Assembly (NCBI GenBank): GCA_002763265.1
Contig: PEZQ01000008.1
Span: 37,788-82,427, forward strand
Source: an archaeon CG10_big_fil_rev_8_21_14_0_10_43_11
GTDB taxonomy: Archaea > Nanobdellota > Nanobdellia > PEZQ01
DNA length: 44,640 nt
Reading direction: 5' to 3'
Below the pieces are notes generated by a model. That model did not search any database and was not told the origin of the DNA. It was given only the letters and a program-made list of their open reading frames with translations. Shown here in pieces: positions 10,936-31,840 of this stretch (position 1 is the first letter of the stretch; every line of letters starts with the position of its first letter). The position numbers were made by a program, and so were the translations under genes.

Positions 10936-11170
10936 CCACTACCACCCGATAATATTTTGCTTCCCCTGCTGTTCTGCTCTTACGTGTGATTTCCACCACG
11001 TCACCCGCCTTGAGTTCCAGTCGCTCGACAATAGGGTCGGATGAGAGCAGCTTTGGCAGCTTTACCCGTTTAATAGAAAATGATTCAAGAAGTGAGGTAA
11101 TTTCAGATTCTTCAAGCTTACGGTAGGCGGGTACAAAATCATGTTGAAGGATATCAAACTTTTTAGGCAT
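10928..11170 (-). CDS. rpoH: DNA-directed RNA polymerase subunit H
   Basis: RpoH is the archaeal counterpart of the C-terminal domain of eukaryotic Rpb5. The 80-aa product has the family's size and motifs: FDILQHDFVPAYRKL, KLPKLLSSDPIVERL and LKAGDVVEITRKSRTAGEAKYYRVVV. It is the first gene of the rpo operon. The ATG at 11170 follows GGTGA by about 5 nt and a TATA box lies at 11206-11215. Confidence 0.97.
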   Translation of the reverse strand: MPKKFDILQHDFVPAYRKLEESEITSLLESFSIKRVKLPKLLSSDPIVERLELKAGDVVEITRKSRTAGEAKYYRVVVDA

Positions 11171-11205
11171 TCATTTCACCAAAGCTTTATGCAACACAAT
11201 GGTAT

Positions 11206-21532: not shown

Positions 21533-21608
21533 AAAAAATGAAAAAGAATAAGCGCCCAAGCCAGAATTCCACCGCACCTTTTTTAGAAAAAAAGCTGCAC
21601 CAAAAAAG
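21533..21608 (-). repeat. tRNA-3'-end mini-element behind tRNA-Asp, with att-like copy of the tRNA 3' end
   Basis: Two parts, read in tRNA orientation. Positions 21608-21566 form a hairpin element containing GGTGCAGC, T-run, CT, A-run, GGTGCGGTGGAAT; it is nearly identical to the element behind tRNA-Thr. Positions 21568-21533 hold a copy of the end of tRNA-Asp plus its downstream flank: the 25 nt at 21533-21557 equal those at 21665-21689 exactly, and a further 11 nt of T-stem match at 7 positions. The distance between the copies is 132 bp. The layout is that of a short insertion bounded by att-like repeats. Confidence 0.8.
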
Positions 21609-21684
21609 TAGGTGTATCAAAGCGTTTAGAAAACTACTAAATAGAGCAGAGTAAGCCCTTAAACAAAAAATGAAAAAGAATAAG

Positions 21685-21759
21685 CGCCCCGGCCGGGATT
21701 TGAACCCGGGTCATCGGAGTGACAATCCGATATCCTAGGCCAGACTAGACTACCAGGGC
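21685..21759 (-). tRNA. tRNA-Asp (GTC)
   Basis: The 75-nt gene folds as a cloverleaf: acceptor GCCCTGG pairs with CCGGGGC (one G-T pair), the anticodon loop is TTGTCAC within a TCGGA/TCCGA stem, and the T-arm is CCGGG-TTCAAAT-CCCGG. The discriminator base is G and CCA is not encoded. No intron is seen. The 3' end is directly followed by a flank that is duplicated 132 bp further on. Confidence 0.96.
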
Positions 21760-21817: not shown

Positions 21818-24800
21818 TTATTTGTAGTTGTCGCATGAGATACCATTTGATGAATTGTACAAGTCATTCATCTGATTTTGAGTAATATCCATGTTAAACA
21901 CCATGAACTCATCAAGCAAGCCATCCCATGGATTCCCATCCCAACCCTTGCCAATCGTGTTATTGCCCGCGCGCGTTGATGAAGCATATGCGTTCGTTGC
22001 AGACTTCATAAGAGTCGCGTTCGTATACCCTTTAACTGAAGAAAGCGTGTTATTCCACGTCAAGCATGAGAAATACCATTGACTCGTGCTGTTTGAAAGG
22101 AAAGGCACTCCCCAAAGCCCACTGCCAAGATTGTTTTGCACCGCCCAAACATAACCCTGTTCATTGCCATTACCATGAATTCGCCACGCAATTTCACCTC
22201 CAGAATAGCTTGCACCACCATACAAATAATCCCACGAACCGCTGGTAATACCCTCCGTGTTATGCCACACGCACACTGTCCCGGCTGCAAGCTCATCAAG
22301 CATTGCATCTTCAATGGTAGCATAGGCATCCACACCATCAAGGGTTAAACACTCATTTATTTTACAATTCGTATGCGTTGAATTCGCATCATTAAGATAT
22401 TGTGCAGCGTACGTTCCTGTTGCGTCAAGCGCAGTATCGTTTCGTCCATTATTATCAAGGTCATCATAATCAAAACTAAAACACGCAACCAAATTTTCTT
22501 TTGCAGGTGAAACGGCACTCACATTAAACGTGACTGTGTCACTTCCATATCCCCCCGTGTTCGTGCACGTCACTAAAACAGTGTACATTCCCCCATCAAG
22601 AACTGAGGAATTTGTAAAGTTAAAAGGTGCTGAATAATCACTACCACTAAAGTAGCTCGAGTTTGTGTAGCACTCATCAACAGAACCTTCCACGGTTACA
22701 TCAATTGATATTGTTTCATTAGACAAAAGCGTTACCCCCTCAGAGGGAGTATCAATTGTAACACGTGGAGGCGTGTAGTAGTGGTCACATGAATACCCAC
22801 GACCATAATTGTATAACAAGTTTGCAAGGGATTGGCTCATATTTGTTTCAAGCACAATAATTTCATCAATCGTGCCATTCCACGGCTGACCGTCCCACCC
22901 GTCACCAAATGTGTTATTCCTGCTGCCCGTTGATGAGTCATACGTGTTTGGCGCTGACGAGACGAGTTTTCCATCCTGCCACACGTACGTGTTTGACGCG
23001 TCCCAACTCATGCAGATAAAATAATTCTTTGACGTGTTCGTATCCACACTCACGCTTGTTCCTGCATTGTTTTGAGTAAACCAACCACTTGTGCTATTAA
23101 GAATACGCATACCAAGCTCATCACTTGATGGATTTGATGACGCGCCAAGCAAATAATTATAACTCCCACTGGCAAGACTATCAACGTTGTACCACATGCA
23201 CACCGTGCCATTCTCCAAATTATTTAACAAGCCATTGTCAACGCTCAAATAATCGTTTGTGCCATCAAATTTCAAACACTCACCCAACTGGCACTCAGTC
23301 GCTGTAGGTGTTGCCCCAACAACTTGCGCAGAATAATTCCCACGCTCACCAACAACTGTATCATTCACACTCGCACCTGTTTCAAGCTCATCATAATCCA
23401 GCGAAAAACACTCACGAACCTCAGAAGAACCGAAAATTGTGTTATAGGCATTGACAATACCATGACCTTGCTCAATATCATTACATCTATCTGAAACTGA
23501 CTCATCATAAAGTGAACCATCAAAATAATAAAAATAATTTCTAGGTTGACAACTAATCGTATCTAAAGTAGTAGATTTTAAGATGTGGATGATTTCTTGA
23601 TTTGATGCAGAAGGATTTTTTTGCAGATAAAGAGCTGCAATCCCTGAAACATAGGGCGCAGCATATGAAGTTCCAGAATCATAAGCATACCATTGACGAG
23701 TGCAGTTGTCAGTTACATTAATAGAACAGGAATAGGAAGAAAATGTTGTAACTCCTGGAGCCACGACATCCAACTCCGTTCCATGACTAGACCAGTAGGG
23801 AACAGTGCCATTATTATCTATTGCGCCTACTGATAACACTTTTGAAGCACACGCGGGGTCACGCATACCCCCAACGCCTTCATTTCCTGCAGCAACAACA
23901 ACTAAATAACCACTATCTACTGCCCAATTAGTTAAGTTAGCAAATACTTCAGTATCACAGGTAGATGTATGAAGATTAGTCTTGTTACCAAAACTTAAGC
24001 TCATAATACGCGCATCAATACTATCCACCGCATATTCAATTGCGTGGCGAACGTTATCCTCTGTACCAACTCCATTTGCATCTAATACTTTTAGCATATA
24101 GAGCCCCGCATTTGGAGCAATGCCTCTAACAGAATTACCCTTCAATTGATTGAATCCACTGCCCACGATTATTCCAGAAATAAGAGTTCCATGCCCTCTT
24201 AAATCAGTGCAGTTATTAGTCTGATTTCCTGAAGGTTCATCAGCAACAAAATTATAACAACCAACAATACTGCTATTTGTCTCGTAGTGTAAGTTGTCAA
24301 CACCCGAATCAAGAACAACGATAGTTTCCCCACTTCCATTAACACCAAAGGTACTAAGTAACTCAGCTCCAATGACTTTTAGACCTGACAAATCACTTTC
24401 TTCATAATAGATTACATCTCGCAACCAATCTTCTAGAGCAATTAATTCGTCTGCAATTTTTTCAGGACAGTTGAATGAAGCGGAGTCAGAGAAAATGTAT
24501 ACTCTAAAGCAACCATTGCTAACTAACAAATCAATGTTTTTCTTAAGAGAAGATTCAGCAACGACACGCTTGTAAGAAATATTATTTTTGACAGTCACTC
24601 TCGTTTCGTAATTTCTTTGAACATTTGAAAAGTCAAACTGTGGCACTTCACTCCAATTAACTTTATCTTCAATAACGGATTGTACCAGCGTTTGCGTGGA
24701 AGAATTATTGTATGTTACAATTGTTTGATTTGTAGCATTTGTAGAATTAGTAATATTCAATGCAAAACCAGTGAGCGCGAATAAAAACAAGACAGAGAAT

Positions 24801-24838
24801 GATAGACTAAAAATGAACAGATATTTCTTCTGATTCAC
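21818..24838 (-). CDS. Secreted subtilisin-like serine protease (S8) with two LamG-like domains, 1006 aa
   Basis: A signal peptide (about 1-27) is followed by an N-glycosylation-rich propeptide region. The S8 domain has the complete catalytic set: IVVLDSGVD (D177), DLRGHGTLISG (H216), VVAAGNEG (oxyanion N319) and DSGTSYAAPYVSG (S391). Then come a LamG/concanavalin-like domain (about 490-700), an Ig-like domain (about 705-800) and a second LamG-like domain (about 805-1006), with no membrane anchor. The start is GTG with GGAGGG 6 nt upstream. The protease half is AT-rich and poor in the GCGC-type words common elsewhere, while the LamG half is not, which suggests a mosaic origin. It likely degrades extracellular protein or modifies the surface. 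Confidence 0.95.
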   Translation of the reverse strand: MNQKKYLFIFSLSFSVLFLFALTGFALNITNSTNATNQTIVTYNNSSTQTLVQSVIEDKVNWSEVPQFDFSNVQRNYETRVTVKNNISYKRVVAESSLKKNIDLLVSNGCFRVYIFSDSASFNCPEKIADELIALEDWLRDVIYYEESDLSGLKVIGAELLSTFGVNGSGETIVVLDSGVDNLHYETNSSIVGCYNFVADEPSGNQTNNCTDLRGHGTLISGIIVGSGFNQLKGNSVRGIAPNAGLYMLKVLDANGVGTEDNVRHAIEYAVDSIDARIMSLSFGNKTNLHTSTCDTEVFANLTNWAVDSGYLVVVAAGNEGVGGMRDPACASKVLSVGAIDNNGTVPYWSSHGTELDVVAPGVTTFSSYSCSINVTDNCTRQWYAYDSGTSYAAPYVSGIAALYLQKNPSASNQEIIHILKSTTLDTISCQPRNYFYYFDGSLYDESVSDRCNDIEQGHGIVNAYNTIFGSSEVRECFSLDYDELETGASVNDTVVGERGNYSAQVVGATPTATECQLGECLKFDGTNDYLSVDNGLLNNLENGTVCMWYNVDSLASGSYNYLLGASSNPSSDELGMRILNSTSGWFTQNNAGTSVSVDTNTSKNYFICMSWDASNTYVWQDGKLVSSAPNTYDSSTGSRNNTFGDGWDGQPWNGTIDEIIVLETNMSQSLANLLYNYGRGYSCDHYYTPPRVTIDTPSEGVTLLSNETISIDVTVEGSVDECYTNSSYFSGSDYSAPFNFTNSSVLDGGMYTVLVTCTNTGGYGSDTVTFNVSAVSPAKENLVACFSFDYDDLDNNGRNDTALDATGTYAAQYLNDANSTHTNCKINECLTLDGVDAYATIEDAMLDELAAGTVCVWHNTEGITSGSWDYLYGGASYSGGEIAWRIHGNGNEQGYVWAVQNNLGSGLWGVPFLSNSTSQWYFSCLTWNNTLSSVKGYTNATLMKSATNAYASSTRAGNNTIGKGWDGNPWDGLLDEFMVFNMDITQNQMNDLYNSSNGISCDNYK

Positions 24839-25568: not shown

Positions 25569-25784
25569 TTACCGCGGCACTTCACTCCAATTAACTTTAT
25601 CTTCAACTACTACTTTTGTTTCGATTTGCGTGGAAGAATTATTATACGAAGCAAAAGTTTGATTTGTCCTGTTTGTACTATTCGTTGAATTAGTAATGTT
25701 AAGTGCGGTTGCGGTTACAATCGAAAAGAAGACAGAAAAGAATAAAGAAAGAATGAACAAAAACGTATTCTTACTCTTCTGGAG
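25569..25784 (-). pseudogene. Relic duplicate of the N-terminus of the subtilase gene
   Basis: The frame encodes about 70 residues that mirror the first 67 of the protease at 24838: QKSKNTFLFILSLFFSVFFS against NQKKYLFIFSLSFSVLF, then ALNITNSTNSTN, ASYNNSSTQ and VEDKVNWSEVP. It then stops abruptly at VPR. The original GTG start and its GGAGGG are missing, and only a TTG at 25760 could start it. It overlaps the end of the gene at 25771 by a few bases. A short secreted peptide remains possible, but a truncated duplication is the simpler reading. Confidence 0.7.
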
Positions 25785-28283: not shown

Positions 28284-28340
28284 CGCCCGGGGAGAGATTC
28301 CACCGCACCTTTTTTAGGAAAAAAAAGCTGCACCAAAAAA
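28284..28340 (-). repeat. tRNA-3'-end mini-element behind tRNA-Thr, with copy of the tRNA 3' end
   Basis: Read in tRNA orientation, 28340-28297 is the same hairpin element as behind tRNA-Asp (about 41 of 44 positions identical by eye), with arms CTTTTTT and AAAAAAG and the flanks GGTGCAG and GGTGCGGTGG. It is followed at 28299-28284 by AATCTCTCCCCGGGCG, a copy of the tRNA-Thr 3' end AATCTCTCCCGGGGCT (28366-28351) with few changes. The spacing between the two is 67 bp. The copy begins in the T-loop. Confidence 0.8.
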
Positions 28341-28350
28341 AAAGAAAAAG

Positions 28351-28424
28351 AGCCCCGGGAGAGATTTGAACTCTCGACCTCTGCCTTACCAAGGCAGCGC
28401 TCCGCCGAACTGAGCTACCGAGGC
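28351..28424 (-). tRNA. tRNA-Thr (GGT)
   Basis: The 74-nt gene folds well: acceptor GCCTCGG pairs with CCGGGGC (one T-G pair), anticodon loop TTGGTAA within CTGCC/GGCAG, and T-arm GAGAG-TTCAAAT-CTCTC. The discriminator base is T and CCA is not encoded. No intron is seen. A pyrimidine-rich tract and the mini-element follow within a few bases. Confidence 0.96.
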
Positions 28425-30115: not shown

Positions 30116-30170
30116 CATATTTTTTTTACTTGACATAAAAAACCTTGGAAAAAAAGAAAGAAGAATACTG

Positions 30171-30216
30171 TTTTTTGGTACCTGCTTCTTTTTCTAAAAA
30201 AAGGCGCGGTGCAACT
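30171..30216 (+). repeat. Divergent tRNA-associated hairpin element behind tRNA-Leu
   Basis: The sequence begins TTTTTTGGTACCTGCTTC and continues with a T-run, CT, A-run and GGCGCGGTGCAACT. It aligns over its full length with the elements behind tRNA-Asp and tRNA-Thr and shares their inverted T/A arms, with one mismatch in the stem. No copy of the tRNA-Leu 3' end is visible after it. The rest of 30116-30333 contains no gene that I can support. Confidence 0.65.
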
Positions 30217-31748: not shown

Positions 31749-31767
31749 CTTTTTCACTTTCTTTTTC

Positions 31768-31840
31768 TTTTGGTACAGCTTTTCTTTTAGCAAAAGAAAA
31801 GGTGTTGTGAAATTCAGGCAAGGGCACTTTCTTTTTCTTG
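31768..31840 (+). repeat. tRNA-3'-end mini-element behind tRNA-Glu, with copy of the tRNA 3' end and flank
   Basis: The element starts TTTTGGTACAGC and contains a perfect 10-bp hairpin: CTTTTCTTTT at 31779-31788, a 3-nt loop, and AAAAGAAAAG at 31792-31801, then GTGTTGTGAAATT. A copy of the tRNA 3' end follows at 31810-31827: 15 of 18 positions match the segment at 31732-31749 that runs from the T-loop through the discriminator. The CTTTCTTTTTCTT flank is also repeated. The distance between copies is 78 bp. Confidence 0.8.

What the first reader, a model, noticed from the sequence alone, without database searches (positions are those of the whole stretch)
28284..28424. Same hairpin element and a copied tRNA-Thr 3' end: a family of tRNA-targeted mini-elements
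The element at 28297-28340 is nearly identical to the one behind tRNA-Asp, and its far edge is again a near-copy of its own host tRNA (AATCTCTCCCCGGGCG against AATCTCTCCCGGGGCT), not of tRNA-Asp. So the hairpin is shared but the flanking repeat follows the host tRNA. That pattern argues for repeated insertion or recombination at tRNA genes and not for duplication of a whole block. In all three cases the copy starts in the T-loop at AAT, a place where some integrases are known to cross over.
Basis: partly seen in the sequence, partly recalled or inferred. Interest (0 to 1): 0.85.

Follow-up and report, generated by a model that had tools for sequence, protein, structure and literature searches.

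The report
Tiny triplex-hairpin inserts at archaeal tRNAs
Behind this threonine tRNA gene, in the genome of a very small archaeon, sits a ~45-base hairpin element that appears to have jumped into the gene and duplicated the gene's end so that the tRNA stayed whole; relatives of the element occur in about a quarter of the sampled genomes of this archaeal class, often inside tRNA genes like introns, and most keep an unusual mirror-symmetric sequence expected of a triple-stranded fold.

Summary
In this ~1 Mb DPANN archaeal genome the same hairpin lies behind 14 of 39 tRNA genes and, with one exception, nowhere else. It is followed by a copy of the tRNA's 3' end starting in the T-loop. The copy follows the host tRNA (0 of 20,000 permutations as good), with two clear exceptions. 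The integrase/att-site reading is not supported. The same element ('E') is in 90 of 378 genomes of the class. At several sites, including start or stop regions of protein genes, it has the same anatomy: a truncated gene end flush with E's 5' side and the intact gene on E's 3' side, from direct duplications of 14-61 nt (8 of 63 sites against 0 of 374 shuffled controls). The tRNA 'copy' is therefore best read as a long target-site duplication that restores the gene. In a related family E sits inside tRNA genes and 16S rRNA, like introns. E has a strongly conserved fold: a Py-Pu hairpin, a covarying 3-bp stem after a mismatch, then a second purine tract that mirrors the first, an intrastrand-triplex signature. 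The enzyme is unknown: Cas1, reverse transcriptase and Y1 transposase are absent from most carriers tested.

The parts
28350..28424 (-). tRNA-Thr(GGT), intact host gene
   Evidence: ARAGORN; Rfam RF00005 64.8 bits
28300..28349 (+). Element E, written in E-sense (+ strand, antisense to the tRNA): CCACC-GCACC-[S1 TTTTTT]-loop-[S1' purine]-CTGCACC-[S1'' A-rich]; model match 28304-28342
   Evidence: 49.6 bits, E 3.6e-10 in the window
28309..28327 (+). Hairpin stem S1/S1' (CTTTTTT...AAAAAAG) of E
   Evidence: sequence; R1 model alignment
28328..28344 (+). Linker CTGCACC and second purine tract S1'' (third-strand candidate; nearly all A here, so its mirror symmetry is uninformative in this copy)
   Evidence: sequence; mirror tests in informative relatives
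28284..28299 (-). Copy of the tRNA-Thr 3' end from the T-loop (AATCTCTCCCCGGGCG), read as the left copy of the target-site duplication
   Evidence: 14/17 to host, rank 1
21569..21609 (+). Element E behind tRNA-Asp (model match 21573-21609)
   Evidence: 40.2 bits
21533..21568 (-). 36-nt copy of the tRNA-Asp 3' end plus its own 3' flank (89% to 21665-21700)
   Evidence: (D15)
31764..31806 (-). Element E behind tRNA-Glu(TTC), ACA-type
   Evidence: 53.5 bits
31811..31827 (+). Copy of the tRNA-Glu 3' end (AATTCAGGCAAGGGCAC)
30169..30208 (-). Degenerate element E behind tRNA-Leu(TAA); no recognisable tRNA copy
   Evidence: 24.7 bits

Best explanation
The block at 28284-28349 is one insertion of a member of a family of tiny non-autonomous mobile elements (E, core ~38-50 nt) found across a class of DPANN archaea. 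Shown: E's 5' end (E-sense) is flush with the insertion point, here in the T-loop; the target from that point outward past the gene end is present twice; the intact gene lies on E's 3' side and a truncated terminal fragment on its 5' side. Inferred: E entered the tRNA-Thr T-loop, the insertion duplicated at least 16-17 nt of target, and the insertion survived because the duplication rebuilt a whole tRNA. Shown by sequence: the E family conserves a hairpin with one mismatch, a covarying 3-bp extension and a second purine tract that mirrors the hairpin's purine strand. Inferred: single-stranded E folds as an intrastrand triplex, and this fold is what the unknown mobility machinery recognises. 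Inferred: when E lies in the sense orientation inside a tRNA or rRNA gene (family f8) it is removed from the RNA as an intron.
For: Genome-wide tRNA association: 12/12 exact hits, all but one of the model hits down to E 0.0423. Host-specific copies: 0/20,000 permutations. Copies run on into the host's own 3' flank: Lys(ttt) 28 nt exact, Asp 25-nt exact block, Ile(tat) tandem unit. The same anatomy with unrelated target sequence at protein gene ends: L262 in this genome (PHP-type ORF, 29-nt repeat), L268 (43 nt), L266, L267, L272, and at a tRNA-Gly 5' end (L274); 8/63 sites against 0/374 shuffled flanks. Syntenic empty sites in G001 for Thr(ggt), with both neighbouring genes conserved, and for Lys(ttt). 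Fold: 22 double-sided compensatory cells against 7.1 in shuffles (0/500 reach it), 99.4% paired. Mirror tract: 43 better, 0 worse, 17 ties among 60 informative elements, 0.975 against permuted 0.820 (sd 0.012); second set selected without looking at the third strand: 16 better, 3 worse, 19 ties. E inside tRNA genes of f8; in-silico excision gives a tRNA call in 25 of 73 element clusters (some calls with wrong anticodon); E inside 16S, 23S and RNase P genes; tRNA endonuclease present in G000, G008, G037.
Against: No enzyme identified. Duplication length varies widely (14-61 nt), unusual for a single transposase. The stretch between E's 3' end and the duplicated target varies (0-57 nt). Only 8/63 sampled sites outside the host's tRNAs show a detectable duplication; many E sit in tRNA introns, directly behind tRNAs or at stop codons without one. 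Two of the host's copies match another tRNA. In the Thr copy the tracts are nearly all A/T, so the triplex signature cannot be read from it. The fold energy of the Thr block is not exceptional (z -0.54).
Confidence: 0.68

Rival explanations
1. Relic T-loop intron: E was once an intron in the T-loop, the distal 'copy' is the old 3' exon, and an intronless 3' end was later placed in front of it so that splicing is no longer needed.
For: The copy starts at about the position where f8 tRNAs carry T-loop introns with the same hairpin; E is tRNA-linked in this genome except at one site; the tRNA endonuclease is present.
Against: E is in the opposite orientation to f8 introns; the same D-E-D anatomy occurs at protein gene starts and ends (L262, L268, L266, L272), where an intron origin makes little sense; syntenic sites in G001 are simply empty.
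Confidence: 0.12
2. Site-specific recombination at tRNA genes: the repeat is the attachment identity block of a tyrosine recombinase and E is a minimal integrated element or a remnant of one.
For: The block from the T-loop to just past the 3' end is the classical shape of such att sites (general knowledge); tandem units at Ile(tat).
Against: Duplicated blocks at other sites are unrelated sequences in protein genes; a ~60-bp element is too small for conventional circular integration (general knowledge); no larger element with these ends was seen in the stretches fetched.
Confidence: 0.08
3. E is a functional RNA 3' element (terminator or U.A-U triple-helix stabiliser behind tRNAs and mRNAs) kept by selection, and the copies arise from gene conversion or slippage.
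For: E lies immediately behind tRNAs in G001 and f8, and at stop codons of ORFs in several genomes; structure and mirror tract conserved in each copy.
Against: Orientation relative to the gene differs between genomes; E also lies inside tRNA, rRNA and RNase P genes; 25 of 39 host tRNAs have no E.
Confidence: 0.09

Closest known systems
Intrastrand triplex motifs of bacteria (TM_ECO; Holder et al. 2015, PMC4666352)
   Same: Same topology: pyrimidine stem, loop, purine stem, second loop, second purine stem; many copies per genome; purine-motif triplex geometry.
   Different: TM_ECO is G/C-rich (CCCTCNCCC-N3-6-GGGNGAGGG-N3-GGGNGAGGG), always intergenic in E. coli and not linked to mobile elements in that paper; E is A/G-rich with a covarying 3-bp stem and conserved mismatch, sits at or inside tRNA and rRNA genes, and has flanking duplications. 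tRNA is not mentioned in that paper.
Archaeal tRNA/rRNA (BHB) introns
   Same: In f8 genomes E lies within tRNA genes at D-loop, anticodon and T-loop positions and in 16S rRNA.
   Different: In the window the tRNA is uninterrupted; E is behind it and antisense. A literature model of intron gain (Caldiarchaeum, PMC3293823) invokes a 1.8-kb recombinase-bearing element, not a 40-nt hairpin.
MITEs / REP elements
   Same: Short, structured, no coding capacity, interspersed, presumably moved in trans.
   Different: No terminal inverted repeats; one asymmetric hairpin plus a mirror third tract; duplications of 14-61 nt rather than a short fixed length.
Casposons (Cas1-type integrases)
   Same: Target-site duplication; a tRNA-Leu-like region is among the reported M. 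mazei target sites (PMC10359463).
   Different: Casposon MetMaz-C1 is ~10 kb with a 31-nt TIR and a 14-nt TSD; E has neither, and Cas1 is missing from 11 of 12 E-bearing genomes.
Eukaryotic introners (intron-generating transposons)
   Same: Idea of a small mobile element that becomes introns in one lineage.
   Different: Different domain and splicing system; the link between E insertion and intron birth is only inferred here.

Membership tests
Intrastrand triplex motif (hairpin plus mirror third tract) | Pyrimidine stem, complementary purine stem, third tract mirroring the purine stem | tested here: met
   for the family; in the window the Glu copy fits with a self-mirror tract, the Thr and Asp copies are nearly all A/T and uninformative
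Intrastrand triplex motif (hairpin plus mirror third tract) | Triplex actually forms in solution or in cells | not testable with these tools
   Needs CD/NMR or chemical footprinting
TM_ECO | CCCTCNCCC...GGGNGAGGG sequence pattern, intergenic only | tested here: not met
   E is T/C-A/G rich (A2) and lies in genes as well
MITE | Terminal inverted repeats | tested here: not met
   Alignment of E: one asymmetric hairpin near the 5' end; 3' end variable
MITE | Target-site duplication | tested here: met
   8/63 sites against 0/374 controls, but long and variable; host tRNA sites
MITE | Parent transposase with matching ends | not tested
   No larger element with E ends seen in the fetched stretches; no systematic search made
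Casposon / Cas1-mobilised element | Cas1 in the carrier genome | tested here: not met
   Cas1 in 1 of 12 E-bearing genomes
IS200/IS605 or REP (Y1 HUH transposase) | Y1 transposase in the carrier; no target-site duplication | tested here: not met
   Y1_Tnp in 1 of 12 genomes; duplications present
SINE-like retroelement | Reverse transcriptase in the carrier | tested here: not met
   RVT_1 in 0 of 12 genomes; a highly diverged RT is not excluded
Archaeal BHB intron (window copy) | Interrupts a tRNA gene and needs to be spliced | tested here: not met
   tRNA-Thr is complete without it
Archaeal BHB intron (f8 copies) | Interrupts tRNA genes; removal restores a tRNA | tested here: met
   (25 of 73 clusters by a coarse grid; splice sites not proven, some calls with wrong anticodon)
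Archaeal BHB intron (f8 copies) | Strict bulge-helix-bulge motif at the junctions | tested here: inconclusive
   Examined by eye in a few cases only
Tyrosine-recombinase att site at a tRNA | Identity block restricted to tRNA 3' parts | tested here: not met
   Same element duplicates unrelated protein-gene ends

The most novel reading that the evidence does not exclude
E is a new kind of prokaryotic mobile element: a ~40-nt strand that folds into an intrastrand triplex is itself the mobile unit, joins a break by its 5' end, and copies 15-60 nt of target. In tRNA and rRNA genes it either survives beside a restored gene (the window) or becomes a spliced intron (family f8), which would make it an archaeal introner explaining how tRNA introns arise.
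Probability: 0.3. Interest if true: 0.9.

Novelty: new variant of a known kind. Interest (0 to 1): 0.74.

Why it matters
How tRNA introns arise and why tRNA genes are insertion hot spots are open questions. Here one structural family shows both outcomes: inserts that leave a tRNA whole by duplicating its end, and intron-like inserts in tRNA and rRNA genes. Many elements per genome across the class make the insertion rule and the fold testable. The mirror-tract covariation is also unusually clear sequence evidence that a triplex-type fold is under selection in a natural DNA or RNA element.

Tried and rejected
Block duplication of tRNA plus element: rejected as the main process because copies follow the host, though two loci show it. 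Casposon/Cas1, Y1 transposase and reverse transcriptase as a general enzyme: absent from most carriers. Viral carriage: one pattern gave 0 IMG/VR contigs and a second gave one contig with a weak match and no tRNA nearby; not pursued. Named relatives with the closest RNA polymerase subunit: pattern hits there looked like chance, although the covariance model later found real copies in one genome whose pattern hits have the same coordinates (G026). S1'' as an alternative Watson-Crick partner of S1 (a direct repeat of S1'): never the better fit in 60 informative elements. RNA folding energy of the Thr block was uninformative. Rfam has no matching family at gathering thresholds. Literature searches found no description of this element.

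Full report
What is there. The window lies in a ~1.0 Mb, 11-contig archaeal genome. Its RNA polymerase A' subunit is at most 56% identical to named relatives, the closest being Parvarchaeota and Woesearchaeota records, so it is a DPANN archaeon. tRNA-Thr(GGT) at 28350-28424 (-) is intact. Directly behind it, in tRNA sense, lie a T-rich stretch, GGTGCAGC-TTTTTTTT-CCT-AAAAAA-GGTGC-GGTGG and AATCTCTCCCCGGGCG, the last a near-copy of the tRNA's own 3' end. The same arrangement is behind tRNA-Asp and tRNA-Glu; a degenerate one is behind tRNA-Leu.

All 39 tRNA genes with their 3' flanks were collected. Fourteen carry the element: Thr x3, Lys x2, Glu x2, Gln(ctg), Asp, Leu(taa), Val(tac), Arg(cct), Arg(tcg), and an intron-containing gene called Ser by ARAGORN, which by comparison with its neighbour pair in G001 is Ile(tat) and has two tandem units. 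All 12 exact pattern hits in the genome are at tRNAs; so are all model hits down to E 0.0423 except one. The distal 17-mer resembles the host tRNA (12.7/17) more than other tRNAs (9.0/17); no permutation out of 20,000 reached the observed sum (its regex scored 13 copies and missed Lys(ctt) and Arg(cct), which by eye also match their hosts). Exceptions are informative: Ile(tat) carries a Lys-type copy and Arg(tcg) an Arg(cct)-type copy, so some units have spread between tRNA genes as blocks. In several cases the copy runs past the tRNA into the host's own 3' flank (Lys(ttt) 28 nt exact; Asp with a 25-nt exact block), as expected of a duplication of the site.

Empty sites. In G001, the only same-family genome found, tRNA-Thr(GGT) is flanked by the same two genes but has no element and no copy, and tRNA-Lys(TTT) with a syntenic ORF is also empty. 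The neighbouring Ile(tat)/Glu(ctc) pair is likewise element-free there.

The element family. Written in E-sense (antisense to the tRNA in the window) the family is xyzAC(C)-S1-loop-S1'-C-z'y'x'-ACC-S1''. A 14-sequence alignment shows compensatory change in the xyz stem and the hairpin: 99.4% of cells paired and 22 double-sided changes against 7.1 in shuffles. S1'' is the mirror image of S1'. Among 60 elements whose tract is not self-mirror, mirror fits better in 43, direct in 0, 17 tie; mean identity over 79 informative elements is 0.975 against 0.820 +/- 0.012 when S1'' is swapped between elements. A second set from other families, chosen without looking at the third tract and counting both strands, gives 16 to 3 with 19 ties, above all 5,000 permutations. 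Duplication or inversion of DNA does not produce mirror repeats, so this points to selection for a three-stranded fold. That it forms is inferred, not shown.

Distribution and context elsewhere. In family f8, E lies inside tRNA genes at D-loop, anticodon-loop and T-loop positions, up to three per gene, in the sense orientation. In-silico excision yields a tRNA call in 25 of 73 element clusters with a coarse grid (some calls have odd anticodons, so this is supportive only). E also lies in 16S rRNA, 23S rRNA and RNase P RNA genes. The tRNA splicing endonuclease is present in this genome and in G008 and G037.

The decisive comparison. At 8 of 63 E sites outside the host's tRNAs a direct repeat of 14-61 nt ends at E's 5' boundary; shuffled flanks gave none of 374 at that threshold. 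In L262 (this genome, start of a PHP-type ORF), L268 and L266 the repeat is the 5' end of a protein gene; in L267 and L272 the 3' end; in L274 (and by eye L273) the 5' end of tRNA-Gly. In each, the truncated gene end is flush with E's 5' side and the intact gene is on E's 3' side. The window's Thr, Asp and Glu sites have this anatomy. So the tRNA copy is best read as a target-site duplication, and its T-loop start as the insertion point, not as an integrase crossover block.

How it most likely works. E is joined by its fixed 5' end to a break in a gene; 15-60 nt of target end up duplicated; insertions survive where the duplication rebuilds the gene end or, in f8, where the insert can be spliced. 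The enzyme is not known: Cas1 occurs in 1, reverse transcriptase in 0 and Y1 transposase in 1 of 12 carriers. The steps shown are anatomy, host tracking, empty sites, fold covariation and duplications; mobility, triplex formation and splicing are inferred.

Known relatives. The fold topology is that of bacterial intrastrand triplex motifs (PMC4666352), but sequence, genomic position and duplications differ. A model of tRNA intron gain by a mobile element exists (PMC3293823), with a much larger element. The M. mazei casposon has a 14-nt duplication and a 31-nt TIR (PMC10359463). No paper found describes this element, within a library that lacks most subscription journals.

Noticed in passing
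G000:C10:12305-12345 (L262): The only confident element in this genome not at a tRNA: it follows a truncated copy of the first codons of a PHP-type ORF whose intact start lies just downstream.
   Followed up: yes
L026 and L034 (G000:C6:44524-44760): Intron-containing tRNA, probably Ile(tat), followed by two tandem element units carrying a tRNA-Lys-type 3' end.
   Followed up: partly
L093, L281, L286, L287, L291: In several genomes the element begins exactly at the stop codon of an ORF, as if it supplied or replaced the gene's 3' end.
   Followed up: no
L086 (G045:C60): Four head-to-tail copies of a 34-nt element unit directly behind a tRNA gene.
   Followed up: no
L338, L292: Element in or at the edge of the archaeal RNase P RNA gene, antisense to it, near the 5' end of the RNA.
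   Followed up: partly
24637-24751 and 25571-25685: A second, partial copy (77-94% identical blocks) of the 5' coding part of the subtilase-like ORF 21818-24838, 0.9 kb upstream of it.
   Followed up: no
L319 (IMGVR_UViG_3300010883_000187) 11169-11202: A viral contig with one element-like hairpin but a poor outer stem; possibly chance.
   Followed up: partly
L318 (G000:C8:18037-18834) and L320 (G000:C2:66938-67303): This genome has one Cas1 and one Y1 transposase gene, unlike the other element-bearing genomes tested.
   Followed up: no
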